Source: a virus
Reading direction: 5' to 3' (one strand)
IMG/VR virus record: IMGVR_UViG_3300025889_000489
Span: 1 to 33,547 of that record
Length of the DNA: 33,547 bases
The notes beneath the pieces were generated by a model, which did not search any database, had not been told where the DNA came from, and worked only from the letters and a program-made list of their open reading frames with translations. Shown here piece by piece: positions 3,072 to 31,100 of this stretch (positions are counted from its first letter, which is position 1; each line of letters begins with the position of its first letter). Both the position numbers and the translations under genes were made by a program.

Positions 3072-5984
3072 ATGGCTCGTTACATATACGACGTTGAAAC
3101 TAACGGTCTTCTCAAGACGATGGACCGCATCCACTGTCTCGTTATGCGAGACGTGGACACACGCGAAACGTTTCGCTTCCGCCGCGTGGACGAGGATTAT
3201 CCTGCGGTCATCGACAAAGAGCACACGGAACCGGGGCGCCTTCTCTATAAAGCGACACCCGCGCAGGACAACATCGCGGAAGGCATCCGCATGTTGGAGG
3301 AAGCTGATGAACTGATTGGCCATAACATCATCCACTTTGACGAGAAGGCAATTCGTCTCGTTTTTCCTGATTACAATCCCAAAGGCAAAATCACCGACAC
3401 GTTGGTTCTGTCGCGGATGATTATCCCTGACACGAAGTCTGGCGACGCGATGCTCGTGAAGCGTGGGAAGTTTCCTGGCTATCTGGTTGGCTCTCATTCA
3501 CTCGACGCGTGGGGCCATCGTCTCGGTAAGAACAAAGGCGACTATCAGAAAGTTATGATTGGCAAGGGCCTCGACCCGTGGGCGTCGTGGAGCCCCTATA
3601 TGGAGGACTACTGTATCGCTCCATCACACAGGTTACTGGGAACAGACCTTCGCTGGCGCCCTGCATCAGAGTTCTCTGTAGGCGATACCGTTCTCGGTTT
3701 TGACGAATATGGAAACCGTAGGCGCTGGCGTTCAGCAGAGATTGAAAGTATTCGTTATGAAGACGCACCTGTCTTTGATGTTGAGTTGGAAAACGGAGAC
3801 GTAATCACTACCACCGCTGAACATCGTTGGTTGGTTAAGAAAACCAATCCACACAAGGAAACGCTGCGCTATAATTGGGTCGAGACTAAAGACCTTGTTC
3901 CGGGCGTTTCGTCTGTTCCTAAAATGTTAGAAGTGTGGGACGAGGATACGTCAAAGGAAGCCGGATGGCTCGCCGGTATCATGGACGGAGAGGGGAGTAT
4001 GTCTCCCAATTGTCGCCAACTTAGAGTTTCCCAAAACCCTGGACCCGTTTTAGAGCGGATCGATGCGGCCATCACCGCGTACGGTACCTGCGCATCTGGT
4101 CGCGTAGTCAAGAAAAACTCTCGCTGTGAGGTTCGTTATATTTGTGGGTTTTTAGCAGAACGTCTAAAGTTTCTTGGAACAGTTCGTCCAGAACGCCTGA
4201 TTTCCAAAGTCGATTTTAATAAGATCGGCTATATGCAGGCGCGATATGGATGTCACAAGGTTGTTTCTGTACGCCCAGCGGGCGTTCAACAAATTATCAA
4301 GATACAGACATCTTCTAGGACCTTCATTGCCGAAGGTTATCCTATGCACAATTGCGAGAATGACATCGATGTGAACGAAATTTTGTATCACGCGATCACG
4401 CAGGAAATGCCACCAGACTCGGCAACCGATCTTGAACATCAAATCCATGAAATCGTCGGCGTCATGGAGCAGAACGGCTATTTTTTCGACGCGGCGCAGG
4501 CCGAAACACTGACAAAAACCTTAGAGGAAAAACGCGACCAATACGTCGTAGACGTTAAGGCGAAATTCGGCTCTTGGTTCAGGCCCGTTCGCAAGAAAAT
4601 CGTCAAGGCACAGTGGGATGACCCGAACGGCGTCAACGCTGCGAAGACGTACGAGGAACCCGACACCGAGTGGGGTGAGGATTACTCTCGCGCTGTGTGG
4701 GGACGGATGGTGTTCCCAAAGGTCACGTACCGAAATCACAAGAAACTTTCCGACCGCACCGAGGGCTGTCCGTTCGTGCCGATTGAGCGCGTGGACTTCA
4801 ACCCTGGTTCGCGTCCACAGATCATTGACCGCTTTACGACCGTCTACGATTGGGTACCGCACGAATTTACAGACGCGGGCAATCCGCAGGTCGATGATGC
4901 TGTGCTCAACAAACTTACGAAGCGCATCCCCGAAGCCAGCGATCTGTCTGAAATTCTGTTCTACAACAAGTTGATCGGACAAGTCGCCACCGGCAAGGAA
5001 AGCTGGCTCAACAACTACAAGAAAGATGGCGACGGGCGCATACACCCATACACGAACGTCGGTGGCACCGTATCTAATCGCTGCTCACACTCCGGCCCGA
5101 ACATCGGACAAGTTCCGGCGATCAAGGACGCGAAGATTGATGCGGAAGGTCGGGTATGGGACGGAGATACCCAACTTTTGATAACTCCCGACGAGTATGT
5201 GCGGGTCGGCGAGAAGAAAGTTTTGCTCAAAGGCAGGCACGGTGACTACGGTTACGAGTGTCGCGATCTGTTCTTCACGCCTGAGACGATCAATGACGTG
5301 CCATGGATGCAGGTAGGCGTTGACTTGTCCGGTATTGAGTTCCGCATGCTTGCGGAAATCTGTTACGAGTTTGATCAGGGCGAATTGATCAACGTCGTTC
5401 TGTCCGGCGACATTCACCAGATCAATATGGACAGCACCGGCATCACAGAGCGCGCTATCGTAAAGCGCGTGCTGTATGGTTTGATGTACGGGGCTGGAAT
5501 GTGGAAAATCGGGCACACCATTGACCCGTACGCCACCGACGCCGCCAAGAAAGCGCTGGGAGCCACCGTACACGCCAAGCTGATGAAGGGCCTGCCAGCC
5601 CTCGCTAAGGCGATTAAGAAGACGCAGGCGGAAGCCGAGCGCGGTTATTTGATCGCGTTGGACGGACGCAAACTTATGGCGCGCTCGACGCACTCGGCGC
5701 TCAACCTGCGTTTGCAGGGCAATGCTGCGACGATTGCAAAGAAGTGGGTGTGTCTCACCGAGGATATGCTTTTTGAACAAGGTCTAAATCACGGGTGGAA
5801 TGGCGATTTTGTTTTTTATGCGTTTGTGCATGATGAAATCGCCGCAGGCACCAAGAAGGATTTGGTTGATCTGTATAAAACAACGTGTGTGGACGCCGCG
5901 CGCAAGGCTGGAGAGTTTTTTAACTTGAAGTGCCCAATCGACGCAGAAGCAAAAGTTGGTCATTCATGGTCCTCGACGCACTAA
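3072..5984 (+). CDS. polA: DNA polymerase I-family (family A) with 3'-5' exonuclease, intein-containing
   Basis: 970-residue precursor; about 723 after intein removal, a normal size for a T7-like phage replicative polymerase. Exonuclease motifs: Exo I DVET near residue 8, Exo II GHNIIHFD (83-90), Exo III Y-C-E-N-D split by the intein (Y180, then C428-D431). Polymerase motifs: A DLSGIEFR (751-758), B R794…K798…Y802-G803, C VHDE (919-922). All catalytic positions are present, so the mature enzyme should synthesise and proofread phage DNA. AAAGG just upstream of ATG 3072 supports the start. It follows the tRNA-like element and precedes the nuclease operon. Confidence 0.96.
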   Translation: MARYIYDVETNGLLKTMDRIHCLVMRDVDTRETFRFRRVDEDYPAVIDKEHTEPGRLLYKATPAQDNIAEGIRMLEEADELIGHNIIHFDEKAIRLVFPDYNPKGKITDTLVLSRMIIPDTKSGDAMLVKRGKFPGYLVGSHSLDAWGHRLGKNKGDYQKVMIGKGLDPWASWSPYMEDYCIAPSHRLLGTDLRWRPASEFSVGDTVLGFDEYGNRRRWRSAEIESIRYEDAPVFDVELENGDVITTTAEHRWLVKKTNPHKETLRYNWVETKDLVPGVSSVPKMLEVWDEDTSKEAGWLAGIMDGEGSMSPNCRQLRVSQNPGPVLERIDAAITAYGTCASGRVVKKNSRCEVRYICGFLAERLKFLGTVRPERLISKVDFNKIGYMQARYGCHKVVSVRPAGVQQIIKIQTSSRTFIAEGYPMHNCENDIDVNEILYHAITQEMPPDSATDLEHQIHEIVGVMEQNGYFFDAAQAETLTKTLEEKRDQYVVDVKAKFGSWFRPVRKKIVKAQWDDPNGVNAAKTYEEPDTEWGEDYSRAVWGRMVFPKVTYRNHKKLSDRTEGCPFVPIERVDFNPGSRPQIIDRFTTVYDWVPHEFTDAGNPQVDDAVLNKLTKRIPEASDLSEILFYNKLIGQVATGKESWLNNYKKDGDGRIHPYTNVGGTVSNRCSHSGPNIGQVPAIKDAKIDAEGRVWDGDTQLLITPDEYVRVGEKKVLLKGRHGDYGYECRDLFFTPETINDVPWMQVGVDLSGIEFRMLAEICYEFDQGELINVVLSGDIHQINMDSTGITERAIVKRVLYGLMYGAGMWKIGHTIDPYATDAAKKALGATVHAKLMKGLPALAKAIKKTQAEAERGYLIALDGRKLMARSTHSALNLRLQGNAATIAKKWVCLTEDMLFEQGLNHGWNGDFVFYAFVHDEIAAGTKKDLVDLYKTTCVDAARKAGEFFNLKCPIDAEAKVGHSWSSTH
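3612..4352 (+). mobile_element. intein in DNA polymerase (247 residues, single visible LAGLIDADG motif)
   Basis: Residues 181-427 of the polymerase. It starts with Cys181 after …MEDY, has a block B-like TTTAEHRWLV (247-256), a LAGLIDADG-type GWLAGIMDGEGS (298-309) and ends FIAEGYPMHN with the +1 residue Cys428, the classic His-Asn/Cys junction for class 1 splicing. Only one convincing LAGLIDADG motif is visible, and the ~110 residues between splicing blocks suit a small or decaying endonuclease. Removal restores Y-C-E-N-D, the Exo III motif. Precise boundaries are set by the Cys1 and HN/C signals. Confidence 0.92.
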
Positions 5985-8193: not shown

Positions 8194-8652
8194 GTGACAA
8201 GGGACAAACGCGCCCCCAACACCACCCCGTCGCAGAGCCAGACCTCTGCGGCGGGGACCAATCCGGTAAAGGCGCCCACCGTGACGCCAACCCAGGACGA
8301 AACCAACCCGAAGGACCTGTTGGGCATCAAAAAGCCCCCAGTGTCATTGATCCCGTCAGCGGCGCTGTTGCACGAAGCAATGGCAATGAAGAACGGTGCT
8401 GAGAAATATGGGGCCTTCAATTTTCGCCAGAAGAAGGTTCAGGCGATGATCTACGCGGACGCCGCGTTTCGGCATCTGCTCGCGTGGATTGATGGTGAAG
8501 AAACCGCTCCCGATAGCGGCGTGCATCATCTAGGACACGCACGTGCGTGTCTGGCCATCCTGCTTGACGCGCAAGCGTGCGGCAACCTCGTTGACAACCG
8601 CCCGTCCACAGGACGCGCGGCTGCGATCATTGAGGCTCTGACTGTAAAATGA
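8194..8652 (+). CDS. DUF5664-type protein (dATP/dGTP diphosphohydrolase-like, N-terminal family)
   Basis: 152 residues from GTG 8194, supported by AAAGGAG seven bases upstream. The first ~35 residues are a Thr/Gln/Pro-rich linker. From residue ~38 the sequence NPKDLLGIKKPPVSLIPSAA followed by ALLHEAMAMKNGAEKYG, DAAFRHLLAWIDGEE, DSGVHHLGHARACLAILLDA and DNRP is the conserved pattern of DUF5664, recently labelled dATP/dGTP diphosphohydrolase. All conserved His/Asp/Glu positions are present. It may hydrolyse dNTPs or bind nucleotides during phage nucleotide metabolism, in keeping with thyX, nrdJ and dut downstream. The biochemical label is from family naming, not shown here. Its stop overlaps the HNH gene start (ATGA). 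Confidence 0.85.
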   Translation: MTRDKRAPNTTPSQSQTSAAGTNPVKAPTVTPTQDETNPKDLLGIKKPPVSLIPSAALLHEAMAMKNGAEKYGAFNFRQKKVQAMIYADAAFRHLLAWIDGEETAPDSGVHHLGHARACLAILLDAQACGNLVDNRPSTGRAAAIIEALTVK

Positions 8653-9149
8653 TGTCACAAAGTGAAGCGTTGGAAAAATATAAATACGACCGGAAAACAG
8701 GTAAAGTAACGCGTCGGAAAAACACAGGACGCTGGAAGGCTGGAACCGAGGTAGGGACGAAACACAAATACGGTCGAACAGACACCGTTTTTCTTCGTTG
8801 GAAGCAGTGTAATGGCGCACGCCCGCTGACGCACTTAATCTGGCTTATGGAGAAAGGGGCGTTCCCGTCTCCAGAAGTTGATATTGATCATAGAAACAAC
8901 GATCCGCTAGACAATCGTTGGGACAATCTGCGAGAAGCGAGTAGGTCGGAGAACTGTATTAATCGCCGCAATTGGGGGAAGTACCCTAAAGGGGTCAGCA
9001 AAACCAAGGACGGTAAAAAATTTCGCGCACGCATTACGGTCTACGACAAAACCCGTATGTTAGGAAACTATGACACGGCTGACGAAGCCCACGCTGCGTA
9101 TAACTGCGCGGCAGGTTGGGCTTTCGGAGAATGGAGTTATAACGCGTGA
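8649..9149 (+). CDS. HNH homing endonuclease with AP2 domain
   Basis: 166 residues; two consecutive ATGs at 8649 and 8652. An HNH_3-type core is seen: LTHLIWLMEKG, then VDIDHRNNDPLDNRWDNLR (Asp-His, Asn, Asn spacing) and ASRSENCINRR. An AP2-like DNA-binding domain follows: KGVSKTKDGKKFRARI, LGNYDTADEAHAAYN. This is the layout of free-standing phage homing endonucleases, which nick a target in a phage lacking the gene. Base use looks more AT-rich than its neighbours, in keeping with independent transfer. It sits directly before the G-rich pentamer array and thyX. Confidence 0.93.
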   Translation: MMSQSEALEKYKYDRKTGKVTRRKNTGRWKAGTEVGTKHKYGRTDTVFLRWKQCNGARPLTHLIWLMEKGAFPSPEVDIDHRNNDPLDNRWDNLREASRSENCINRRNWGKYPKGVSKTKDGKKFRARITVYDKTRMLGNYDTADEAHAAYNCAAGWAFGEWSYNA

Positions 9150-9253: not shown

Positions 9254-9445
9254 GGTCAAAAGCACGGTCGGGTTGGGCTAGGCTCGGCTCGGCTCGGCAA
9301 GGATCGGCAAGGCGTGGGACCTTTGTGGTCAAAGGCGCGGCTCGGCTAGGCTTGGCAGGGCTCGGCGGGGCACGGCGCGGCATGGGACCTTTACGGTCAT
9401 AAGATATGGCTCGGCTAGGCTAGGACTGGCGGGGCGGGGCATGGT
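9254..9445. repeat. three-copy ~70-bp G-rich array with 5-nt GG periodicity
   Basis: GG dinucleotides recur almost exactly every five bases in three blocks (9266-9320, 9334-9388, 9408-9445), mostly as GGCTN/GGCAN pentamers. Each block starts with GGTCAAAAG, GGTCAAAGG or GGTCATAAG (9254, 9327, 9396). The first two blocks end in TGGGACCTTT followed two bases later by GGTC, which forms a GACC-N5-GGTC mini-hairpin. Unit spacing is 73 then 69 bases. Five-base periodicity is incompatible with coding, so this is a DNA or RNA element. Two-tetrad G-quadruplexes are possible. Confidence 0.75.
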
Positions 9446-9469
9446 TTCACACGATGGTGTGTGAATTTT
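9446..9469 (+). terminator. hairpin plus T-run before thyX (weak terminator or attenuator)
   Basis: TTCACAC (9446-9452) pairs with GTGTGAA (9459-9465) around a 6-nt loop, followed by TTTT (9466-9469). It ends only four bases before the GGAG Shine-Dalgarno of thyX, so it could also modulate thyX translation. The stem is AT-rich and moderate in strength. Confidence 0.4.
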
Positions 9470-9485
9470 AATAACGGAGTTTACG

Positions 9486-10514
9486 TTGACTATCACAGCA
9501 AAGGTCGTTCTCGACTCGATCAGCGAAGAAGGTGTGCGCCTCACTACGATGGAGCTTACCTATCCTCGCTTTATTCACAGCGAATTTATGACGCATCGCG
9601 TTTTTTCGCGCAACGCATCATCGTCTCGTGCTATCCCGGTCGAGAAGATGATCGAACGGATTGTACGCGAACCGGCTGAACCTATCCATTGGGGCAAGAA
9701 CCAGCCGGGTATGCAAGCGAACGAGGAACTGGTTTGGGACACACTCGTGCAGACACGCAAGGCGTGGCTTGAGGCGCGTGACGCCGCAGTCAAGTTTGCT
9801 GCGCGTATGCACAGCCTTGGTGCCCACAAGCAGATCGTCAATCGCGTATTGGAACCGTTCTCTCATATCACCGTACTCGTGACGGCGACCGAGTGGGAGA
9901 ATTTCTTCAAACTTCGTCGCCATCGCGACGCGCAGCCCGAAATTCATGAACTAGCCGACGTGATGTATGAAGCCTATCAAGCCTCAACACCGCGTCTTCT
10001 ACAGCACGGCGAATGGCATCTACCCTACGTCTACGACGACGATCTTGATGAAATCATCAAGACGGCGCTTCACCAGACGCAGGACACGATGTTTGGTCAA
10101 GCAACGCTCGATGACGTTGAGCGAGCTACGACACGTATTGCGTGTCGCATCAGCACGGCACGTTGCGCGCGTGTGTCATACCTGAACCACGACGGAAGTA
10201 ACCCCGATCTGGCGAAGGATGACGCATTGTTTCACAAGTTGATGACCGCTCAGCCTCTCCACGCATCACCGGCTGAACATCAAGCAACGCCGGATCGTAT
10301 TGTGCGCTACGGCGCTGTCTCAACTATCGGCTGGGAGAACCCGCAGTATCACGGCAATCTTGTTGGCTGGCAGCAGCACCGGAAGTTCTTCCTTGGGGAG
10401 AATACGCCGTCTAACCAATTGACAAAGCACGGCGTTTTGACTGCTCATACGGTGAACAAAGTTACTTCGCTTCACAGTGTTAAACCAGTTGACACGCCCG
10501 TTAACCTGAGTTAA
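9486..10514 (+). CDS. thyX: flavin-dependent thymidylate synthase
   Basis: 342 residues, starting at TTG 9486 with GGAG eight bases upstream. The ThyX signature is at residues 36-48 (THRVFSRNASSSR, matching the RHRx7S motif apart from Thr for the first Arg). Further family features are EWENFFKLRRHRDAQPEI (about 140-157), the SARCARVSYLNHDG region and LHASPAEHQA. The enzyme makes dTMP from dUMP with FAD, NADPH and methylene-tetrahydrofolate. It is longer than typical bacterial ThyX (~220-250), like several phage versions. It sits between the G-rich array and nrdJ, forming a dNTP supply group with nrdJ and dut. Its last bases overlap the putative nrdJ promoter. Confidence 0.95.
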   Translation: MTITAKVVLDSISEEGVRLTTMELTYPRFIHSEFMTHRVFSRNASSSRAIPVEKMIERIVREPAEPIHWGKNQPGMQANEELVWDTLVQTRKAWLEARDAAVKFAARMHSLGAHKQIVNRVLEPFSHITVLVTATEWENFFKLRRHRDAQPEIHELADVMYEAYQASTPRLLQHGEWHLPYVYDDDLDEIIKTALHQTQDTMFGQATLDDVERATTRIACRISTARCARVSYLNHDGSNPDLAKDDALFHKLMTAQPLHASPAEHQATPDRIVRYGAVSTIGWENPQYHGNLVGWQQHRKFFLGENTPSNQLTKHGVLTAHTVNKVTSLHSVKPVDTPVNLS

Positions 10515-10517: not shown

Positions 10518-10543
10518 CGAGTCTTCACGCAATGCACTACAAC

Positions 10544-10582
10544 AGGCCTGTCGGGGCTCCCCGTTCCGGCAGGCCTCTTTTT
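10544..10582 (+). terminator. strong intrinsic terminator/attenuator between thyX and nrdJ
   Basis: An 11-bp stem (AGGCCTGTCGG with CCGGCAGGCCT, one G-T pair) with an 11-nt loop is followed by C and TTTTT. This is a textbook Rho-independent terminator. It ends 18 bases before the nrdJ ATG and lies downstream of a putative promoter, so it may act as an attenuator. Confidence 0.8.
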
Positions 10583-10600
10583 GTCTCAACAGGTATCCAC

Positions 10601-13600
10601 ATGACCGCCACGCCTTCCACACGCGCCCAGATTGTTGAGGCGCGCACCTACCTACGTCCACTTGATGACGCGGGCACTGTTTTCGAGACGCCCGAACAGG
10701 CCGCAGACCGCATCATAGGCCATCAGCGCTGGCTTTGGGAGCGCGCCAAGGGCGGTATGCACCGCGTCACCGAAGTCTCAGACCTGCCGCCACTGAAATT
10801 TGACGATCCTGTTGGTTATCGTGTCGAAGACGGCTGGGTCATGATCCGCCTCACCGATGACGAGGAAGCTGAGTTGCAGGAATTGAAGAACCTGTTCCTC
10901 GACCGCAAACTTACCGTCTCCGGGCGCACGCGCTGGCTCGGCGGAACTACCGTTGCCAAGGAACGCGAAAGCACACATTTCAATTGCAGCTTCCTTGAAG
11001 TGCGTAGCGTGCATGACATTGTGGACGCTACGTGGCTCCTGTTGCAGGGCTGCGGCGTCGGCTTCCGCCCTGTCATCGGCACGCTCAACGGCTTCGCACA
11101 ACCGATGGAGATTGAAGTAATTCGCTCACAGCGTGGCCCTTATGAGAAAGGGCCTGAGAACAACGTCGAGACGTTCGATCCCGTCACGAAGACGTGGACG
11201 ATCAAAGTTGGTGACAGCAGCAGCGCGTGGGCTAAGTCAGCCGGTAAACTGGTCGCGGGTAAATACCATGCGAAGAAACTTGTGCTCGATTTCTCACTCG
11301 TGCGCGGTGGTGGTGGACGCCTCAAGAACTACGGCTGGATCAGCAGTGGAGACGCACAGATCGCAAAGGCGTATAAAGCAATTGCGCTCATTCTCAACGA
11401 AGCTGCCGGACGGCTTCTGACACGTATCGAAATCCTCGACATCATGAACTGGCTCGGAACGATCCTGTCGTCGCGTCGCTCGGCAGAGATTGCCGTCATG
11501 GCGTACAACGAGCCTGAGTGGCAGGACTTCGCTTTGGCGAAGAAGGATATGTGGACGACCGGGCGTGATCACCGTCAAATGTCCAACAACTCGATCATGT
11601 TCTACCAGAAGCCAACAAAGTACCAACTCCAACGCATCTTCAAGATGATGATGGATGCTGGCGGATCGGAACCCGGCTTCATCAATGCGCAGGCGGCTAT
11701 GAAACGGGCGCCCTGGTTCAAGGGCGTGAACCCGTGCGTGCCAGCTGACACACGCATTCTTACAGACAAGGGCTATATACCGATAGCGGACGCGGTTGGG
11801 ACCGAAGTTCGCGTATGGAACGGCAGCGCGTGGTCGGCTGTTACCCCGTTCTCTACGGGCGTCAATCCGTTGGTGACTGTGAACCTGTCTGACGGCACGT
11901 CTCTGAAATGCACACCAACACATGAGTGGGTTGTTAAAGACACGTATCGTTCTCCGCCCCGCAAGGTAGCGGCGCAAAGTCTGTCGGCTGGCATGCGTTT
12001 GGCGAAGTTTGATATGCCAATTGTTTCCGGCGGCGAGCGCGTGTCTGGAGATATGTATTCACAGGGATTCTATTCTGGCGACGGGAATACCGGACTAGAA
12101 TTTTCGTGGGTCTATGAGCCTAAATTTAGTGTCATCCCGGCGCTTGTCGGACGCGTCACAGATAAAGTGAGCCACGGTCGCGTCAGGTGGACACACGGCC
12201 CGATGCGTGAAAAGACGTGGGTGCCTCATGGCGCTACTCTTGAACAGCGTGTGGACTGGCTAGCTGGACTGTTGGACGCAGACGGGACCACCGTGTCTGA
12301 CCTTTCTGGCGCCGCCTTGCATTTGTCTAGCTGTGATCTTGATTTTCTGAAAGAGGTACGCCTACTGCTGACTACGATGGGCGTCCAAGCGAAAATCAAC
12401 CTGATGCACGCGGAAGGCAAGGACTTTGATGGTTACGTTTGCCGGGCGTGTTGGCGGCTTCTTATTAACACCGCAGATACGCATCGCCTAGTCAACGAAT
12501 GCGGACTAAAAACACTGCGTCTGCAAATCGGCAAAGATGCGGCGCAGCGTGATGCTCGCCGTTTTGTAACGGTGACCAGCGTCGTTGATACCGGGCGTAG
12601 TGAGGAAACGTACTGCTTTACGGAGCCCCAGAACAACACCGGAACATTCGAGGGGATCGTTACCGGACAGTGTTGCGAAATCATGCTGGGTGACCGCTCG
12701 ATGTGCAATCTAGTGGAAACTGTTCTCCCGCGCTTCAACGACGACGTTGAAGGCCTTCACCGTGCTCACCGGCTTGTTGCCCGCGCCAACTACCGCCAAA
12801 CCTGCGTCAATCTTGATGACGGCGTACTACAGCGTGGTTGGCACGAACTGAATGAGTTCCTTCGCCTCTGCGGCGTCGGCGTAACAGGCGTTGTGTCGTG
12901 GGATCATTGGCGTGATCCGGCTGCGTGGGAAGACCTACGTAACATCGCCGTCAACGGCACTCACAGCATGGCAGACGAACTCGGCCTACCGCGCTCTAAG
13001 GCAGTGACGACGGTGAAGCCGTCCGGCACGCAGAGCAAGGCGCTGGGCATCGTCGGTCACGAAGTGCCAGAAGGCATCCACATGCCCATCGGACGATTTA
13101 TTTTCAACCGTATCCGCTTCTCTACCCACGACCCGATCATCAACAAGTTGCGTGAAGCCAACTACGCTATCGAACCCGACCCGTCAGACGCTACAGGTGT
13201 CCTGGCAGTGATCCCGGTGGAATTTGCTGGGATCAAGTTCGACACGGTTCAGGTTGGCGACGAAACCATTGAAGTCAACAACGAGAGCGCTATAGCGCAA
13301 CTTGATCGCTATAAACTGTTGATGGACAACTACGTGGATCACAACGCGTCGATCACCATCTCCTACGATCCCGAGGAAGTCCCCGAAATTGTGGACTGGC
13401 TGATGGCGAATTGGGACACCTACGTTGGTGTCTCGTTCATCTATCGTCAGGACGCCACACGCACGGCGGCAGACCTAGGCTACAAGTATCTCCCGCAGAC
13501 CCTCGTCAGCGAGAAGACTTATAGGGCGTACGCTGACAACCTTCTGCCCGTCAACCTGTCCGAGAACGCGGCGGCTGAGATGCTTGCCGATAGTATGGAA

Positions 13601-13630
13601 TGCGCGGGTGGTGCGTGTCCGGTACGGTAA
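10601..13630 (+). CDS. nrdJ: adenosylcobalamin-dependent (class II) ribonucleoside-triphosphate reductase, intein-containing
   Basis: 1009-residue precursor from ATG 10601 (an in-frame ATG at 10532 lies upstream of the terminator and is rejected); about 697 residues after splicing, close to the monomeric RTPR of Lactobacillus leichmannii. Active-site parts: Cys129 in NCSF (partner of the reducible disulphide), extein NP-C-C-E-I with Cys691 as the predicted thiyl-radical cysteine, Cys702 eleven residues on (same spacing as RTPR C408-C419), KPSGT, and a C-terminal Cys1001-x4-Cys1006 pair that re-reduces the active site. It converts NTPs to dNTPs using coenzyme B12, which must come from the host. 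No cobalamin riboswitch was found upstream. Confidence 0.96.
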   Translation: MTATPSTRAQIVEARTYLRPLDDAGTVFETPEQAADRIIGHQRWLWERAKGGMHRVTEVSDLPPLKFDDPVGYRVEDGWVMIRLTDDEEAELQELKNLFLDRKLTVSGRTRWLGGTTVAKERESTHFNCSFLEVRSVHDIVDATWLLLQGCGVGFRPVIGTLNGFAQPMEIEVIRSQRGPYEKGPENNVETFDPVTKTWTIKVGDSSSAWAKSAGKLVAGKYHAKKLVLDFSLVRGGGGRLKNYGWISSGDAQIAKAYKAIALILNEAAGRLLTRIEILDIMNWLGTILSSRRSAEIAVMAYNEPEWQDFALAKKDMWTTGRDHRQMSNNSIMFYQKPTKYQLQRIFKMMMDAGGSEPGFINAQAAMKRAPWFKGVNPCVPADTRILTDKGYIPIADAVGTEVRVWNGSAWSAVTPFSTGVNPLVTVNLSDGTSLKCTPTHEWVVKDTYRSPPRKVAAQSLSAGMRLAKFDMPIVSGGERVSGDMYSQGFYSGDGNTGLEFSWVYEPKFSVIPALVGRVTDKVSHGRVRWTHGPMREKTWVPHGATLEQRVDWLAGLLDADGTTVSDLSGAALHLSSCDLDFLKEVRLLLTTMGVQAKINLMHAEGKDFDGYVCRACWRLLINTADTHRLVNECGLKTLRLQIGKDAAQRDARRFVTVTSVVDTGRSEETYCFTEPQNNTGTFEGIVTGQCCEIMLGDRSMCNLVETVLPRFNDDVEGLHRAHRLVARANYRQTCVNLDDGVLQRGWHELNEFLRLCGVGVTGVVSWDHWRDPAAWEDLRNIAVNGTHSMADELGLPRSKAVTTVKPSGTQSKALGIVGHEVPEGIHMPIGRFIFNRIRFSTHDPIINKLREANYAIEPDPSDATGVLAVIPVEFAGIKFDTVQVGDETIEVNNESAIAQLDRYKLLMDNYVDHNASITISYDPEEVPEIVDWLMANWDTYVGVSFIYRQDATRTAADLGYKYLPQTLVSEKTYRAYADNLLPVNLSENAAAEMLADSMECAGGACPVR
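11735..12670 (+). mobile_element. intein in nrdJ (312 residues, LAGLIDADG endonuclease)
   Basis: Residues 379-690. It starts at Cys379 (CVPADTRILTDKG), has block B TPTHEW (438-443), two LAGLIDADG motifs (GFYSGDGN, ~489-496; WLAGLLDADG, 553-562) and ends FEGIVTGQ with +1 Cys691. The C-terminal residue is Gln rather than Asn, a rare but known variant. Two dodecapeptide motifs suggest a working homing endonuclease. Removal restores GVNP-CCEIML, so the +1 nucleophile is the enzyme's own radical cysteine. Confidence 0.93.
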
Positions 13631-16100: not shown

Positions 16101-18359
16101 ATGGTCAAAAGTATCTCTGCCGGTATGACGACTGCGCTTGACGCAGATGTGACGCAACTTGCTCTCTGCGTTGAGATTGAGCGAGACGACGGGCGTGTGT
16201 ACCGTATGACTAACCACGACACCGACCTCACAGTGTCGGGCAAGGTCTACCGCAGCGATATTTCCTTCAACCTGTCCGCCATCAGCAGCACGTCGGGGCT
16301 CGCCGTTGATAACACGGAACTGACGCTCGCGCTGGACGGCACGCTTTTCGTTGCCGAAGATTTTCAGAACGGCGCGTTTCGCAACGCGCAAGTCACTGTG
16401 TTCCGTACGAAGTTCTCGGATACTTCTGTCGGACGCCTTGTAGTCAGGAAAGGATGGTTCGGTGAAGTCAACTTCAACCAGCACGGATATGTTCAAGTCA
16501 CTATCATTGGACTACTCAAAGTCCTTGATCTCATGGTGGGTCGCCTCTATCAGCCTGCTTGCGATGCCGATCTTGGCGACAAGCGCTGTCGCATCGCGAT
16601 TGATGGGGGTCAAGCGTACGCCCACGACAACATCTATCGAGTAGGTGATTGGGTCTACGTCTACGACGAAGCATCTATGACTTCAATCCCCATCACTAAC
16701 CACGACTTCGAAGACGACGGCGCCCGCACCGTTGCGCAGGCCATCACCGGCTGGACAAAATCAAGCCCTGCTGCGTGGGTGGTCGCCAGTTCCTCCAGTG
16801 GTCTTAATGACTACGGGCTCGACGGTGGCGCGTTCTCACTATTCGGCACAACGTTTACCGGCGATCAGGACGTTGAGCAGTTCGTTTATCAGGACATCGA
16901 TCTTGTAACGGCAGGCCTCAGTGCTACCGACATCGACGCCGGAAAGATTTCGTGCCTGTTCTCCGCAGCGATGGCGAACTACACAGGCGTCTCCGACAAG
17001 CCGCGCCTGCGTGTTGAGTTCATGAACGCGGCGAGCGAGATTATCGACCGCAAAGATACTCGCTACATCGATCTGTACGCCGAAGACGATTGGGAGCGCC
17101 ATCACGTAGGTGGGCCTATCATCGCTGGCGCACGTACCGCCCGTGTATACCTGTACGCATACGTCCCAGCGACAGTTAATGCCTCACGCGCTGCCTTTGA
17201 TGATGTTAAGGGGTGGTGGTGGGATCACACGTTGGGAAATCCCAACGGCGACATGATCCACAAGGTATCACGCATCTACAGCACGGCAGGCGCAATCGAC
17301 TCCTGGGGCTCGGCACAGAACGGTCCTGCCGTCGCTGGCGAGACGTACATCAAACGTCCGCGTAACCCGTCATTCGAAGCTGGAGCCCCTGTGGCGAATA
17401 GCCAAGGCCCTACGGCAACCGTTGGGTCGGTATGGCGGCGCGTCAACGGAGCTAACGGCGGTGACTGGTTCAGCGTAGGTACGACGCTCGGCGGCATTAG
17501 AGCGCCGTGGAACACCTACATGCTCATCGGCGGCGACAACAGCAGCGGCGTGCAGAGCACGTACGGCGTCTATCAGAACATGGTTCTGGTAGCGGATTGG
17601 GGCCTAGACGTAGCCGAGGTTGACCTTGGACACTACGTTGGTGAGTTCGTGATGACGAACGTGTTCGGTGACGCCACGAGCGCCGTACGCGTGCAACTCG
17701 CATGGAAGAACGCTGGCGGCTCTGTGATCAGCACCGACACGGTGATTGACTGGACCGTCAACGCAGGCGCTCCGATTGAGGTTGATACGAGCGGTCGCTT
17801 CGCTATCCCCGTCAACGCACGTTCTGTTGACATCTATCTATATGTGCGCTCTCCGGTCGGCAGCAGCGCAGCGAGCGTCGCTATCGATGACGTGAGGATG
17901 TACCTGCTCAACGCCTACGCGGCGTCGTCCAAGGACGTTGAGTTTGGTCAAGGTGTGGACGGAACCGTCTTCGACTATGATAGCGGTGATTTCACATTCG
18001 ACGGCGATCTGATCTGGCAGGCGCACACGGCCCACATCGCGTACGACACTGTGGCAAGTGTGACAGACAAGAAAAACTTCACAGCTACATCACTCGCCGG
18101 ATCAGATGGCTCCTACAATACGGCGCTAATTCGCTGGATCAGCGGCGATAACGCTGGACGTAAGAACGTGATCCGCACGTGGACTTCGACCGGCAAACTG
18201 ATCAAGACATACTTCGACCAGATGCAGGACGTTCAGGTTGGTGATCGCTTCCAGATCATCGCGCCGTGCTTCCACCGCTTCACGGAAGACTGTGTAGTAC
18301 GCTTCGATAACGCGTTAAATTTCCGTGGCTTTCCACATCTACCAGGGAGGCGCGGCTGA
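16101..18359 (+). CDS. DUF2163/BR0599-like tail hub protein with large central insertion
   Basis: 752 residues from ATG 16101. The N-terminal ~195 residues are DUF2163 (SISAGMTTALDADVTQLA … GRLYQPACDADLGDKRC). The C-terminal ~100 are the BR0599 domain ending NFRGFPHLPGR. These ends match the gene transfer agent hub protein g13. Between ~198 and ~625 lie two beta-sandwich, carbohydrate-binding-like modules, each opening with NHDFEDDG/NPSFEAGA and closing with …AAFDDVK/…VAIDDVRMYL. Cys154, Cys163, Cys723 and Cys731 lie in the two terminal domains and may form the metal/Fe-S or disulphide site described for GTA and lambda-type hubs. Unusually, it lies after the lysis genes, opposite in strand to every other tail gene here. 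Confidence 0.88.
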   Translation: MVKSISAGMTTALDADVTQLALCVEIERDDGRVYRMTNHDTDLTVSGKVYRSDISFNLSAISSTSGLAVDNTELTLALDGTLFVAEDFQNGAFRNAQVTVFRTKFSDTSVGRLVVRKGWFGEVNFNQHGYVQVTIIGLLKVLDLMVGRLYQPACDADLGDKRCRIAIDGGQAYAHDNIYRVGDWVYVYDEASMTSIPITNHDFEDDGARTVAQAITGWTKSSPAAWVVASSSSGLNDYGLDGGAFSLFGTTFTGDQDVEQFVYQDIDLVTAGLSATDIDAGKISCLFSAAMANYTGVSDKPRLRVEFMNAASEIIDRKDTRYIDLYAEDDWERHHVGGPIIAGARTARVYLYAYVPATVNASRAAFDDVKGWWWDHTLGNPNGDMIHKVSRIYSTAGAIDSWGSAQNGPAVAGETYIKRPRNPSFEAGAPVANSQGPTATVGSVWRRVNGANGGDWFSVGTTLGGIRAPWNTYMLIGGDNSSGVQSTYGVYQNMVLVADWGLDVAEVDLGHYVGEFVMTNVFGDATSAVRVQLAWKNAGGSVISTDTVIDWTVNAGAPIEVDTSGRFAIPVNARSVDIYLYVRSPVGSSAASVAIDDVRMYLLNAYAASSKDVEFGQGVDGTVFDYDSGDFTFDGDLIWQAHTAHIAYDTVASVTDKKNFTATSLAGSDGSYNTALIRWISGDNAGRKNVIRTWTSTGKLIKTYFDQMQDVQVGDRFQIIAPCFHRFTEDCVVRFDNALNFRGFPHLPGRRG

Positions 18360-19102
18360 TGGGTAAGCGCGTAGCCGATATGACGCCGGAAGAACGTGAT
18401 AAGGAGAGAGCGCGGCATGCCAAATATCGCGCTGAAAATCCTGATAAGGTGAGAGCGCAGCAGGCCAAATATTACGCTGAAAATTCTGATAAGGTGAGAG
18501 CGCGGCGGGCCAAATATTGCGCTGAAAATCCTGATAAGGTGAGAGCGCAGCAGGCCAAATATTACGCTGAAAATCCTGATAAGGTGAGAGCGCAGCAGGC
18601 CAAATATTACGCTGAAAATTCTGATAAGGTGAGAGCGCAGCGGGCCAAATATTACGCTGAAAATCCTGATAAGGTGAGAGCGCGGCATGCCAAATATCGC
18701 GCTGAAAATCCTGATAAGGTGAGAGCGTGGCAGGCCAAATATTGCGCTGAAAATCCTGATAAGGAGAGAGCGCGGCGGGCCAAATATTGCGCTGAAAATC
18801 CTGATAAGGTGAGAGCGTACCATGCCCGGCGCAGAGCCCGCGAGTTGCGTGCCGAACCACGTTGGCTTTCACTGACACAACGTATGGCAATCAACGAGGC
18901 CTACGCACGTGCGTGCGAGTTAGATAGACTAACAGGCATAACACATCACGTAGATCACATCTGGCCGTTGAAAGGCAAGACCGCATCTGGACTACACGTT
19001 CCGTGGAACCTGCGCCCTATTCCAGCCGAAGACAATTTGAAGAAATCCAACAAGCGTCCGAAAGAACCGGGCTGGACCCAGGATCATGAGTGGTCTGTAT
19101 GA
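18359..19102 (+). CDS. HNH endonuclease with N-terminal 15-residue tandem repeats
   Basis: 247 residues. Residues ~10-158 are a highly charged helical repeat region (AENPDKVRAQQAKYY, ~nine copies plus a partial one). The C-terminal HNH core is HHVDHIWPLKGK … LHVPWNLRPIPAEDNLKKSN, preceded by a helix (MAINEAYARACELDR). The start overlaps the DUF2163 stop by one base (TGATG). The repeats probably form a long coiled or solenoid DNA-binding arm. It is likely a homing-type nuclease inserted after the tail gene, but it could be a packaging or recombination HNH protein. Confidence 0.88.
   Translation: MGKRVADMTPEERDKERARHAKYRAENPDKVRAQQAKYYAENSDKVRARRAKYCAENPDKVRAQQAKYYAENPDKVRAQQAKYYAENSDKVRAQRAKYYAENPDKVRARHAKYRAENPDKVRAWQAKYCAENPDKERARRAKYCAENPDKVRAYHARRRARELRAEPRWLSLTQRMAINEAYARACELDRLTGITHHVDHIWPLKGKTASGLHVPWNLRPIPAEDNLKKSNKRPKEPGWTQDHEWSV
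18428..18832 (+). repeat. nine tandem 45-bp repeats in the HNH gene
   Basis: Units start at 18428, 18473, 18518, 18563, 18608, 18653, 18698, 18743 and 18788, in frame, each encoding 15 residues; a partial unit precedes them. Differences cluster at a few codons (GCAGCAG/GCGGCGG/GCGGCAT). High DNA identity means copy number can change by slippage or recombination, and it creates long spurious ORFs on the other strand. Confidence 0.95.
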
Positions 19103-27300: not shown

Positions 27301-28154
27301 TAGGTCAGGAAGATGGGCTGTGCGTCATCAAACTCCTCGATAGGAGACGGGAACTGGAAATACGAACGTGGCGTGATGCCGGTCGTGTTCGCCAGAACTT
27401 CAACAGCCAGATCAGGAACGGCGTTGTCAGCCGACACGTAGTTCTCAACAAAGATGTAGGCGACACCACGATACGCGGGTGTTGTTCCGACACCTTCGAT
27501 GTCGATCATCGCCTGCGGAGGAAGTTGGGACTCAGTACCTTTGAAGATCGTGAACTTCGTGACCTTGTTGCTGATGCTGAGATTGCCGAACGGGCCTGCG
27601 GGGTCGGTGATGTCGATCTGCAACGACTTCAAGTTGCCGTCAGCATCGGCCTGCACGACGCCGTTCACGTCTGTGTCGGCTGTGTTGTCATAGATCAGGA
27701 CGTTGTTCGACCAGATGCGTAGGACGTTCGCAAGTTCGCCTTCACAGATCGCCAGAGCGAAACTGACGCTGTAGTATAGCCCCTGCTCTCCGGTATCTTG
27801 GATCGTGTAGTAGTTGGGCGTGCTGTTCGCCCAAATGACGTTGCCCTTCAACTTGTCAGCGCCGAAGACGAGCGGGATCGGCTGACCGTACGACGAGTTA
27901 GCGTAGTTGGTCAGTTTCTCAGGCGTAGGTAGTGGCGTAACAGGCACAGGCACAAGCGCGGCGCCGTCACAAGGCTGCGGTTTGCAGAACAACTCACACA
28001 TACCAGCCCAGGACGAACTAAGCCCCAGCGCTTTTGATATGCTCATGGCCGCAATCTGGCTGACCTTGCAGCAGTCAGCCCCGCCTCCCCCGCCACCGCC
28101 AGTGGTAGGGTTAGGTTGTGGCTTGAACGAATATGGGCCGATAAACTGAGGCAT
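24360..28154 (-). CDS. tail hub/host-specificity protein (GTA megatron/gpJ-like) with probable beta-propeller insertion
   Basis: 1264 residues; AAGGAG five bases before ATG 28154. After a Gly7 run and a Cys-rich N-terminus (~25-62), the hub core begins: SYGQPIPLVFGADKLKGNVI (88-107), YYSVSFALAICEGE (127-140). Residues ~280-690 are a WD/PQQ-like series of strands (…VISVINAYTG…, …MVKYNPYSGEVIW…, …IYQINTVDGTVTI…) that fit a beta-propeller. From ~700 the gpJ-like fold resumes (SSVVGQLLERVGV … RKITITYRDIGREYEQ). It forms the baseplate tip that contacts the host surface. Confidence 0.88.
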   Translation of the reverse strand: MPQFIGPYSFKPQPNPTTGGGGGGGADCCKVSQIAAMSISKALGLSSSWAGMCELFCKPQPCDGAALVPVPVTPLPTPEKLTNYANSSYGQPIPLVFGADKLKGNVIWANSTPNYYTIQDTGEQGLYYSVSFALAICEGELANVLRIWSNNVLIYDNTADTDVNGVVQADADGNLKSLQIDITDPAGPFGNLSISNKVTKFTIFKGTESQLPPQAMIDIEGVGTTPAYRGVAYIFVENYVSADNAVPDLAVEVLANTTGITPRSYFQFPSPIEEFDDAQPIFLTYDPSFNTITVHSRDSTGTGAGLNVAGYTLINNTTFEQIRQLPVEPNFTGSLSFRARQTLSLSNGHYLQGASFGNAHTISVINAYTGLVNDILGPGNATLSTMASDGFAALQDTCISFVARGADGMPADIFLGFSVFGGCYAFAQVNPNNNTLNMLSFNNSVFPNYNDVYAYAIQLTPSLQADNPTFADGTTSTYGTNVLCVTAAQNEKTEIAIWVISYDNSYVEATPFSPVHTQIDTISLSHFFGEGIATQVVKLMYDTEDGTVIIVARCTEVGLSDFARMVKYNPYSGEVIWSVPVKYSNNSTQGWASSEMITNSTYAWLEWPQDRIYQINTVDGTVTIPIYDLTAESLPGATDTGIGQFYNGFENTLTYVTDEATNQICKVYLGRTARSAVTVSSVVGQLLERVGVSDELIGVDDLTALTLDGYTISAPTALQTAYNELATVFTFDIIESNGQIVYKGRGAASVATVPNEDLADVDQNGWLAERTDPDFAAARKITITYRDIGREYEQNVQNFVLPKYTNLDFDADAPIEVTVPIVLDAETAKTLAEVLLYSKVIYETSFNFRIPRRYAYLEPGDTVTLTMSGTRDVVCRIRELSEGADGLIEVTAVLEDPEIYTDQVNVFGITGRFDGSTISVLDPVIDIEMIPIPYAYPNVLADYEANYLYTVTAFNTIENQELLPRDFKVSIDGGDDLLVPAITTFPTWGTVITPPKTPVSYYSTDTESTIVVKMLSTTGVALASAASEDAMINNGLINLCVIGGELMQFQTVTDNGDGTYSLTNLIRAKYGTDGAASVGHYSGERFVLLGNNAGILDYTSFRTLTVPFGDNPSKVIRARLISNNPFQPECIRRVVASNVRPWSVGGLEAEYDMSGNADFVWQYRTRYDGEWVDDGTELQAFTDGPSEEYTLYLLTDFSTFNLDDPTTYLRKEIVTVSSYEYTTANQTADGFDNTTDDLYILVHVSTSVTGNEPGVFNAKRLQHL

Positions 28155-28162
28155 GAGGCTCC

Positions 28163-31100
28163 TTATGCCTTCTTATTACGCTGCGTCGGGTCTTCCCGCT
28201 TATTGGCTGCGCCAAGACGTGCGCCGATGCGGTCAAACTCGGATTTGAACTCCTGCATGATCTGTGCCTTAGACTTGCTAAAGCTCGCAGCATCGGGAGT
28301 CTGGATATTCATTTGAATAGTGATCGGCGCGCGGCCTTCCGAACGCGGCGCAACGCTTGACACGCTCGTGCGGCTGCGCGACACGATGGACTCGCCCATA
28401 CGGCTCGTACCGCGATACTCGCGCGTCAACGTATCCATGAGCGCCGACACTTCTGCTGGCATCTGGACAGGAACACTACGTCCATCAGGAAGTGGGATCA
28501 CTGCTTCATCAGGATGCAACGTCGCGGAGAAGCCGCCCCGTGTATCTTTCCAAGCATTCGGTGAACCTGTGGCAAAGCCCATAGAGAAACTATTGGTACC
28601 GCCGTAACGCTGTCCTCTTGCGAACTGCTTCGCGCGGGTTTCGTAGCTCGACTTCATCTGCGGCGTCTGCGCGTTCTTCGCCATCTCACGATAGTAGGCG
28701 GCGGCGAGCGTCGGGTTAGACCACAGATAATCCTCGTAGGCAGACGCAGCATATCCAGCCGCGTTCTGCGCGTCGGCGTAGGCCTGACGATCACCAGGGT
28801 TGAGCATGATGCGTGGGGCGTTGCCCGTACCGTACTGGAAGTACGGCGCGTTATTCCAGATCGACTCGGCACGATCATTGGCCTGCGAAAGAGCGTTGCT
28901 CAAGGACTTCGCCTGCTGAGCAAACTCAAACAGCGTACCGGAGCCTCCGGTACCGCCAGTCAGTGCGCCGCCCGTGCCGATGTTGCCACCAGCAGAGCCG
29001 CCAAGTCCGAGGGTACCACCGCGGCTTGTGCCGCCGCCTGAGATACCACCGCCACCGCCGAACGACTTGAGCGCAGCAACGCCATTCACGACGGCGGCAA
29101 TACCGAGGGCCACTTTGTCGATGCTGTTCTTGAGAACAGACGTATTGGCGTTCACAGCTTCCCTGACACGCGCGACTTCCGTCTTCGTGTCAATCTGCAC
29201 GGTATACATCGCACTCATGATACCGGCGATTGCCGACATATCACCACCACCACCGCCAGCAATAGGGATCGCGCCACCACCTGTCAGAGGTACGACGGCT
29301 TCGTTGGGATGGAGTACGGCAGGGATACCGCCAGAACCGAGGATTTGGTTCGTATTCTCAATACCACCGGCAAGTTTCGGCGCGCCTTTCCACAGCGCAG
29401 CGGGGAGGTTACGCCACTTCTTGTTGGTCCCCTTGTGTGAGATACCGCCGCCAGAGAACAGCGACCCGCTGTCGAACATACTTCCTTCGAAGCCGATAGG
29501 CCCCTTCGCTTCCGGCATGCTCGTACCGTAGTCACCGCCGCTGGTAAGCGTAAAACTCGTCGTGCTGCTCTCAACCTGACGCTGCGTAGAGGCGAGCGAC
29601 TGCAACGCGCTCTCAAGGCTGCGAGCCTTAGACGTGGCGCTGCTCATGCTTGAGTCCATGTTGCGATAGCTGTTGGACGCTTTGTCAGACGCGTCGGCGG
29701 CAGAACTGGTGGCGCTACTTGCGCCTGACATTGCTGAACTATACTTCTCAGCGCCGCGTGCGACGTTGGTCATCGCCTCCTGCACTTTCTCCATGCGGGC
29801 GGCGAGTTCTTCCATCTTCTGCGCGTGTTCTTCGGCAGTAAGTGAGCCAGCCTTCAACTGCTCATTGTAGTTGGCAATAAGGCCCTGGATAACACCGATC
29901 TCAGCCCCAAGAACCTGCTGCGCCTGCGCAAGTTGCGTAGTGCTGATGCCCCAATCGTTCGAAGCGTTGGCGGCGGCGTACATCGCCTCACCCATCGTAT
30001 CGACTTCGCCATTGATGCCTTGCGCCGCCGCATATAGTTGGTTAGCGCTCTGTGCCGCAGTGGACGTTGCGCCAGCGAACATATTGTAGGCAACGACAGC
30101 CGCGCCAATAGCGACAGCGACGGCGGTGATAACAGGATTGAGCATCGCGAACGAAGCTATGGCAGATGCTACCGCCATACCGACGCTGCCGAGCGAAGTG
30201 ACGAGCGGAGCGAGAGACGACAGGCTCAACACACTCGCAGCCATACCGAGCGTCTTGAACGTAGCGCCGAGCGTGCCCGCCGCCACGACGGCGCCACCAA
30301 ACACGGCAGCAATACCGCCGAACGGGCCGGACAACAAATTGGTGATCGCCGCGCCGAGGTCTATAGCCATAGCCGCGATTGAACCAAGAGTAGCCCCGAG
30401 AGACGCCGCCGCACCGGAACTTACAAAATTCTGAACGGCGCTGGCGAGGTTATTCACAGACGGCGTGATGGCGTCGAAAAAGCCTCCGCTCACCGACATC
30501 TGTAGTTCGGCCCACGCATTGCCCATACGGTTTGACGCGCCGATCCACGTCTTCGCCATCGCTTCGGCAGCAGGACCCATCTCCTGCGCCAACAAGGCAG
30601 CAAACTTGCCGACGTTGCTGGAAGCGACTTGTCCAGCTTCCATCATCTTAGAAAGCTCTGCGGTGCCGATACCCATCGACTTAGCAAACAACTGCACAGC
30701 GCCGGGGATCGCGTCACCCAACTGCTGTTTCAATTCTTCGGCAGTGACCGTGCCTTTGTTGAACATCTGTTCAACAGCCTTGAACACACGCTGGGTCTTG
30801 ATCGCATCCGCGCCAACACCAGCAAGACCAACGGACAGGTCTTTGAAAATCTGATTGGCTTCCGCGCCGCTCCGTCCTGACAAACGGATCGCGGTGGCAA
30901 ACTTAGGATAGGTATCGACAAGTTCCCGCAACGGCAGACCTAGTTGTTCCGCAGTCGCGCGCAACACGTCTAGAGACGCCGCCGAGCCACCTACGTCCTT
31001 CATCGATACGTCAACGATGGACCGGAACGATGCCATCTGCTTTTCAATGTCGTTGAGGCCTGAGACAAACCGCCCGAACCCGACAGCACCAAGCGTGACG

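What the first reader, a model, noticed from the sequence alone, without database searches (positions are those of the whole stretch)
9254..9485. Three-copy pentanucleotide (GGNNN) array upstream of thyX
GG recurs nearly every five bases for ~55, ~55 and ~38 bp, in three ~70-bp units. Each unit opens with GGTCA(A/T)A; the first two close with GGGACCTTT and a GACC-N5-GGTC mini-hairpin. The phase cannot encode protein, and the units differ in bases while keeping period and borders, which suggests selection for structure or spacing. I know of no named phage element like it. It could be an RNA scaffold, a protein-binding array, a G-quadruplex tract or an origin.
Basis: seen in the sequence. Interest (0 to 1): 0.75.

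Follow-up and report, generated by a model that had tools for sequence, protein, structure and literature searches.

The report
Phage guide-RNA array of VIPR type
The odd five-letter repeat in front of this phage's thyX gene is almost certainly a set of three guide RNAs of VIPR, a CRISPR-like phage weapon first described in a 2026 preprint; this copy is unusual because no matching VIPR protein gene was found in the 33.5-kb piece of genome held.

Summary
Three runs of GG in strict 5-nt phase (11, 11 and 8 GGs) lie at 9266-9444, between an HNH gene and thyX, far beyond chance. G-quadruplex, origin and slippage readings are not supported. Pattern scans found GGCNN arrays in at least 120 viral stretches, with GGC fixed and NN near random; same-pattern arrays in bacterial genomes are mostly uniform microsatellites. 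85 of 120 viral array loci encode one ~200-aa protein family (PHROG 4652), against 0 of 79 control loci; arrays share its strand 216:7. That family matches PDB 36pp 'SUSP1 Vipr protein' (E 8e-44) and folds like Cas7/Csm3 RAMPs. A 2026 preprint (PMC13142463) describes exactly this: VIPR, in which Vipr binds vrRNAs of GGY/NN repeats and the NNs pair with DNA with one base skipped. The window therefore carries three vrRNAs, probably in the thyX 5' leader. A near relative (upstream flank 581/584 identical) has two units with a rewritten guide: guide turnover. No Vipr gene was found in the window fragment or the relative's 13-kb record, and no target above chance, so function here is inferred. By-product: tRNA-like minihelices punctuate some other VIPR-type arrays. 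Verdict: new member of a known kind.

The parts
9254..9265 (+). leader of vrRNA 1, GGTCAAAAGCAC; resembles the 3' half of the tails of units 1 and 2
   Evidence: sequence
9266..9315 (+). vrRNA 1 repeat tract, 10 x GGYNN (one GGA); NN = CG TG TA TC TC TC AA TC AA GT
   Evidence: reading frame of the code from PMC13142463
9316..9331 (+). tail of vrRNA 1, GGGACCTTTGTGGTCA, predicted GACC-N5-GGTC hairpin
9334..9383 (+). vrRNA 2 repeat tract, 10 x GGCNN; NN = GC TC TA TT AG TC GG AC GC AT
9384..9399 (+). tail of vrRNA 2, GGGACCTTTACGGTCA
9408..9442 (+). vrRNA 3 repeat tract, 7 x GGYNN (short; one GGA); NN = TC TA TA CT GG GG AT
9443..9470 (+). 3' hairpin of unit 3 (stem 9446-9452 / 9459-9465) and T-run; a different tail, terminator-like
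   Evidence: fold of 9445-9478: -8.3 kcal/mol, z -2.1
9486..10514 (+). thyX (TTG start, AACGGAG just upstream); the array lies in its probable 5' leader
   Evidence: (phrog_85, E 8e-94)
8649..9149 (+). HNH endonuclease gene directly upstream of the array
   Evidence: phrog_99, E 8e-39

Best explanation
The segment encodes three vrRNAs (guide RNAs) of a VIPR system. Each is a tract of GGY/NN pentanucleotides followed by a hairpin tail. By the published mechanism, a small RAMP protein (Vipr, a Cas7 relative) binds the RNA, and the variable NNs pair with double-stranded DNA with one target base skipped per step, blocking transcription of a competing phage, satellite or prophage. That several Vipr subunits coat the RNA, holding GGY and presenting NN, is my inference from the Cas7 comparison and the six chains in 36pp. 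Shown here: the array, its phase, its code-like conservation, guide turnover between two near relatives, and, across other phages, a tight genetic link to Vipr. Inferred from the preprint: RNA processing, complex formation and DNA recognition. Inferred without support in the window: that a Vipr (elsewhere in this phage, or supplied in trans) uses these guides, and what they target.
For: (1) GG phase far above shuffles; Y at position 3 in 25 of 27 repeats. NN diversity there is about 7 distinct per 10 units (random expectation 7.6), while same-pattern arrays in bacterial genomes mostly have 1-3. Single interruptions hit position 3 78 times (GGT 59, GGG only 3), G1 25, G2 23. (3) The PHROG 4652 family is in 85 of 120 array loci, 0 of 79 thyX control loci, and among 120 bacterial-genome loci only in 5; arrays share its strand 216:7, median distance 183 nt. 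(4) That family equals Vipr: PDB 36pp, E 8e-44; AlphaFold model pLDDT 97 matches Csm3/Cas7 RAMPs, Foldseek E about 1e-5. (5) PMC13142463 describes vrRNAs of 9-16 YNNGG repeats plus a structured 3' tail; SUSP1 read here shows such arrays on both sides of vipr/vap. (6) Window versus L002: upstream flank 581/584 identical, thyX 927/1030, but array 212 versus 130 nt with one wholly different guide, while phase, tails and unit 3 are kept.
Against: No Vipr in the 33.5-kb window (best E 0.37), none in L002's 13-kb record, none in 40 records of thyX relatives. Unit 3 has 7 repeats, below the 9-16 reported, and another tail. No target above chance for the guides with the 1-nt skip rule. Expression not seen. 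The source is a preprint whose supplement could not be read here.
Confidence: 0.87

Rival explanations
1. Orphan guide cassette (a special case of the best explanation): the phage carries vrRNAs only and relies on a Vipr made by a co-infecting phage, prophage or host, in the way mini-CRISPR arrays in phages use host Cas proteins.
For: No Vipr in the window, L002's record or thyX relatives. Of 120 array loci, 27 with diverse NN arrays lack vipr in the locus, and whole records supply one in only about four of them; one record of 105 kb (G034, L094) has an array and no detectable Vipr. The preprint reports satellites with their own vrRNAs.
Against: Window and most such records are fragments; 85 of 120 loci do have vipr nearby; Vipr types too diverged for profile A1 would be missed.
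Confidence: 0.25
2. Decaying remnant of a VIPR locus whose vipr gene was lost; the array now drifts.
For: Unit 3 is short, with GGA in place of GGY once; unit 1 also has one GGA; no vipr seen.
Against: GG is kept in all 27 repeats; the guide was replaced between near-identical relatives while phase and tails were kept, as expected under continued use.
Confidence: 0.12
3. A cis-acting leader of thyX (attenuator, or a TRAP-like ring-protein site) unrelated to VIPR.
For: The array sits directly before thyX and ends in a terminator-like hairpin; TRAP binds 11 triplets spaced by 2-3 nt (own knowledge).
Against: TRAP family absent from 33 array-bearing records; linkage of such arrays is to Vipr, not thyX (85 of 120 array loci against 0 of 79 thyX loci). 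A side effect on thyX is not excluded.
Confidence: 0.06
4. G-quadruplex tract, R-loop or replication origin, or slippage microsatellite.
For: Two-layer G4 (GGN3) is formally possible; G-rich on the sense strand.
Against: C rather than A or T at position 3 and avoidance of G there; random NN speaks against recent slippage; link to a RAMP-fold protein.
Confidence: 0.02

Closest known systems
VIPR (Viral Interference Programmable Repeat) vrRNA arrays, phage SUSP1 and P. fulva prophage (PMC13142463)
   Same: tandem GGY/NN repeats of about 10 units, hypervariable NN, hairpin tail after each tract, several units in a row, intergenic, phage genome
   Different: no vipr or vap beside it; array in front of thyX; third unit with 7 repeats and another tail; tail GGGACCTTTNNGGTCA found in no other fetched locus; mostly GGC where SUSP1 has mostly GGT
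GGCNN arrays beside PHROG 4652 genes in Mycobacterium cluster F (Zizzle) and J (LittleE) and Gordonia (Pipp) phages
   Same: same pentanucleotide code, same strand logic, units gained and lost whole
   Different: Vipr homologue adjacent; units end in GGCA (cluster F) or in tRNA-like minihelices (LittleE)
Class 1 CRISPR crRNA arrays and Cas7/Csm3 RAMPs
   Same: RAMP protein with a periodic guide RNA, variable part followed by a constant part
   Different: guide letters are interrupted every two bases; no repeats/spacers, no Cas genes
TRAP (MtrB) leader of the Bacillus trp operon
   Same: triplets spaced by 2 nt, about 11 per site, before a gene
   Different: GGC not (G/U)AG; no TRAP gene in array-bearing records

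Membership tests
VIPR vrRNA array | 9-16 tandem YNNGG repeats (GGY alternating with NN) | tested here: met
   units 1 and 2: 10 repeats each (Y 9/10 and 10/10); unit 3: 7 repeats, Y 6/7, below the stated range
VIPR vrRNA array | NN hypervariable while GGY is conserved | tested here: met
   7, 8 and 6 distinct NN in the three runs; L002 has a different guide in the same frame beside a 581/584 identical flank; family-wide
VIPR vrRNA array | structured 3' tail after the repeat tract | tested here: met
   GGGACCTTTNNGGTCA after units 1 and 2 and after L002 unit 1, predicted hairpin; unit 3 has another hairpin; no covariation available, so structure rests on prediction
VIPR system | vipr (RAMP) gene in the locus | tested here: inconclusive
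   not adjacent and not in the 33.5 kb held, but the record is a linear fragment
VIPR system | vap accessory gene | tested here: inconclusive
   neighbours are HNH endonuclease and ThyX; no dedicated vap search; rest of genome not held
VIPR system | vrRNA expressed and bound by Vipr | not testable with these tools
   needs small-RNA sequencing and pull-down
VIPR system | DNA target matching NNxNNx (1-nt skip) | tested here: inconclusive
   no exact full-length match in IMG/VR for units 1 and 2; shorter 8-NN cores give hits without extra flanking matches; one 1-mismatch match in 385 alphaproteobacterial genomes, about 0.1 expected, reading into a stop
TRAP-bound leader | TRAP/MtrB protein available | tested here: not met
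   0 of 33 array-bearing records; control B. subtilis positive
Y RNA / Ro60 RNP | TROVE-domain protein available | tested here: not met
   0 of 33 array-bearing records; control Deinobacterium positive
microsatellite | near-identical tandem units | tested here: not met
   6-8 distinct NN per run; bacterial-genome microsatellites mostly 1-3

The most novel reading that the evidence does not exclude
Phages can carry vrRNA cassettes without any vipr gene and act in trans through a Vipr of another phage, prophage or host, so that guide arrays and effector spread separately. The window array, its relative L002 and about 23 other Vipr-less array records would be such orphan guide cassettes. A second unexcluded novelty in the wider class: tRNA-like minihelices between arrays (LittleE and others) let RNase P or RNase Z cut polycistronic vrRNAs into single guides.
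Probability: 0.25. Interest if true: 0.75.

Novelty: new member of a known kind. Interest (0 to 1): 0.5.

Why it matters
VIPR is a newly described RNA-guided system proposed as an ancestor of CRISPR. This locus adds a Vipr-less array in a phage with no near match in the phage collection. It also gives a natural experiment in which a guide was replaced between relatives with near-identical flanking DNA, bearing on how new guides are acquired, a question the preprint's main text does not settle. The survey also ties PHROG 4652 and several mycobacteriophage, Gordonia and Felix O1-type genes of unknown function to this system, and shows tRNA-like punctuation in some arrays.

Tried and rejected
Rfam on the window and 20 array loci: no hit. 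TRAP and TROVE partners: none. Protein-coding reading: rejected by phase shifts between units and by NN statistics. Microsatellite: rejected by NN diversity. G4/origin: no support. BLAST with a pure array query: no match, probably the low-complexity filter. Early literature searches missed the preprint; it was found only after the PDB name 'Vipr'. Target decoding with the NNxNNx rule in IMG/VR, the window and 385 alphaproteobacterial genomes gave nothing above chance. Crude ORF calling around arrays (29) was superseded by the Vipr-strand count. Searches failed on a wrong handle.

Full report
What is there. On the + strand between an HNH endonuclease gene (8649-9149) and thyX (9486-10514, TTG start) the window holds three runs of GG spaced by exactly five bases: 9266-9317, 9334-9385 and 9408-9444. 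An 11-slot score of 11 is never reached in 2000 dinucleotide shuffles of the same segment (maximum 9) and the rest of the window reaches 6. Before the tails, position 3 is a pyrimidine in 25 of 27 repeats. Units 1 and 2 end in GGGACCTTTNNGGTCA (9316, 9384); unit 3 ends in a 7-bp hairpin and a T-run, followed by AACGGAG and the thyX start.

The same place in a relative. L002, an independent IMG/VR contig, keeps HNH and spacer (581 of 584 identical) and thyX (927 of 1030). Its array is 130 nt instead of 212 between the same anchors: two units instead of three. Unit 3 differs by little; the other unit has a guide unlike either window unit, in the same frame and with the same tail.

A widespread class. 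In arrays of ten or more units the viral ones show about seven distinct NN among ten, near the random expectation of 7.6; arrays of the same pattern in bacterial genomes mostly show one to three and are microsatellites. The bacterial-genome pattern was longer than the viral one, so the two sets are not exactly matched; the NN comparison uses only chains of ten or more in both. Within chains, single exceptions fall on position 3 (78, of which 59 GGT and only 3 GGG) far more than on G1 (25) or G2 (23). Arrays lie on one strand in 35 of 36 records, and the backward control pattern gives 3 matches in all. Among cluster F mycobacteriophages whole units ending in GGCA are gained or lost, and the few point changes seen by eye fall on NN.

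The partner protein. LittleE gp34 beside its arrays led to a family (PHROG 4652, unknown function) present in 85 of 120 array loci, in none of 79 thyX control loci, and in 5 of 120 bacterial-genome loci. Arrays share the gene's strand 216 to 7, at a median distance of 183 nt. The family profile matches PDB 36pp 'SUSP1 Vipr protein' with E 8e-44. An AlphaFold model of a member (pLDDT 97) matches Csm3/Cas7-type RAMPs by Foldseek.

What is known. PMC13142463 (bioRxiv 10.64898/2026.04.26.720920) reports VIPR: Vipr, a RAMP homologue, with vrRNAs of 9-16 YNNGG repeats and a structured 3' tail. NN dinucleotides specify a DNA target with one skipped base per step; the complex represses transcription, and many targets are satellites and prophages; hammerhead-interspersed and staggered arrays are mentioned. 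The SUSP1 locus read here shows GGY/NN arrays upstream and downstream of vipr/vap, and wV8 likewise.

Conclusion for the window. The array meets the RNA-side features of VIPR (repeat code, variable NN, tails). The protein side is not seen: no Vipr in the 33.5-kb fragment, in L002's 13 kb or in 40 records of thyX relatives. About 23 other records with diverse arrays also lack a detectable Vipr, one of 105 kb, but most are fragments. So this is filed as a VIPR vrRNA array; a complete VIPR system is not claimed. Decoded guides (unit 1 CGxTGxTAxTCxTCxTCxAAxTCxAAxGT; unit 2 GCxTCxTAxTTxAGxTCxGGxACxGCxAT; unit 3 TCxTAxTAxCTxGGxGGxATxTT, whose last TT comes from the tail) have no target above chance in what could be searched.

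By-product. Linkers in some VIPR-type arrays are tRNA-like: a 5-7-bp acceptor-like stem, 9-12 nt that nearly always contain GG, and a T arm with loop TTCGANY. With one scan such elements occur 15 times within 150 nt of arrays and twice elsewhere (0.187 versus 0.0009 per kb; the 15 include LittleE counted in two overlapping loci), in LittleE (4), L104 (2), L182 (3), L086 and L087; stems differ in sequence while pairing is kept. Pairing was required by the scan itself, so the enrichment near arrays, not the pairing, is the evidence. ARAGORN and Rfam, run on part of these loci, do not call them. The preprint's main text mentions hammerheads but not these; its supplement was not available.

Noticed in passing
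L083 (LittleE) near 107, 242, 1563 and 1706; L104; L182; L086; L087: tRNA-like minihelices (acceptor-like stem, short GG-containing loop, T arm TTCGANY) punctuate vrRNA-type arrays; 15 near arrays versus 2 elsewhere; possible RNase P/Z processing signals.
   Followed up: partly
window 10532-13630: Ribonucleotide reductase ORF of 1032 aa, about 300 aa longer than relatives, with a LAGLIDADG domain at residues 573-653: probably an intein.
   Followed up: partly
window 18397-18817: 45-bp tandem repeat, 9.4 copies at 92% matches, inside ORF 18359-19102 (15-residue protein repeat overlapping an endonuclease VII-like match).
   Followed up: no
window 16101-18359: Baseplate hub protein whose N- and C-terminal domains are separated by about 500 residues without a Pfam match.
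   Followed up: no
G025 (L340-L342), 27867-30247 of the contig: A 55-kb phage contig with long vrRNA-type arrays on both strands flanking a Vipr homologue and its neighbour gene, the exception to the one-strand rule among 36 records.
   Followed up: partly
L430 1259-1316 and 2652-2709 (phage wV8): GenBank 'repeat_region DR_4' of Felix O1-type phage wV8 lies in the intergenic regions that hold the vrRNA arrays around a Vipr homologue annotated as hypothetical.
   Followed up: partly
L094 (G034, 105 kb), near 5129: A diverse array of about 14 units with no detectable Vipr in a 105-kb record: candidate orphan vrRNA.
   Followed up: no
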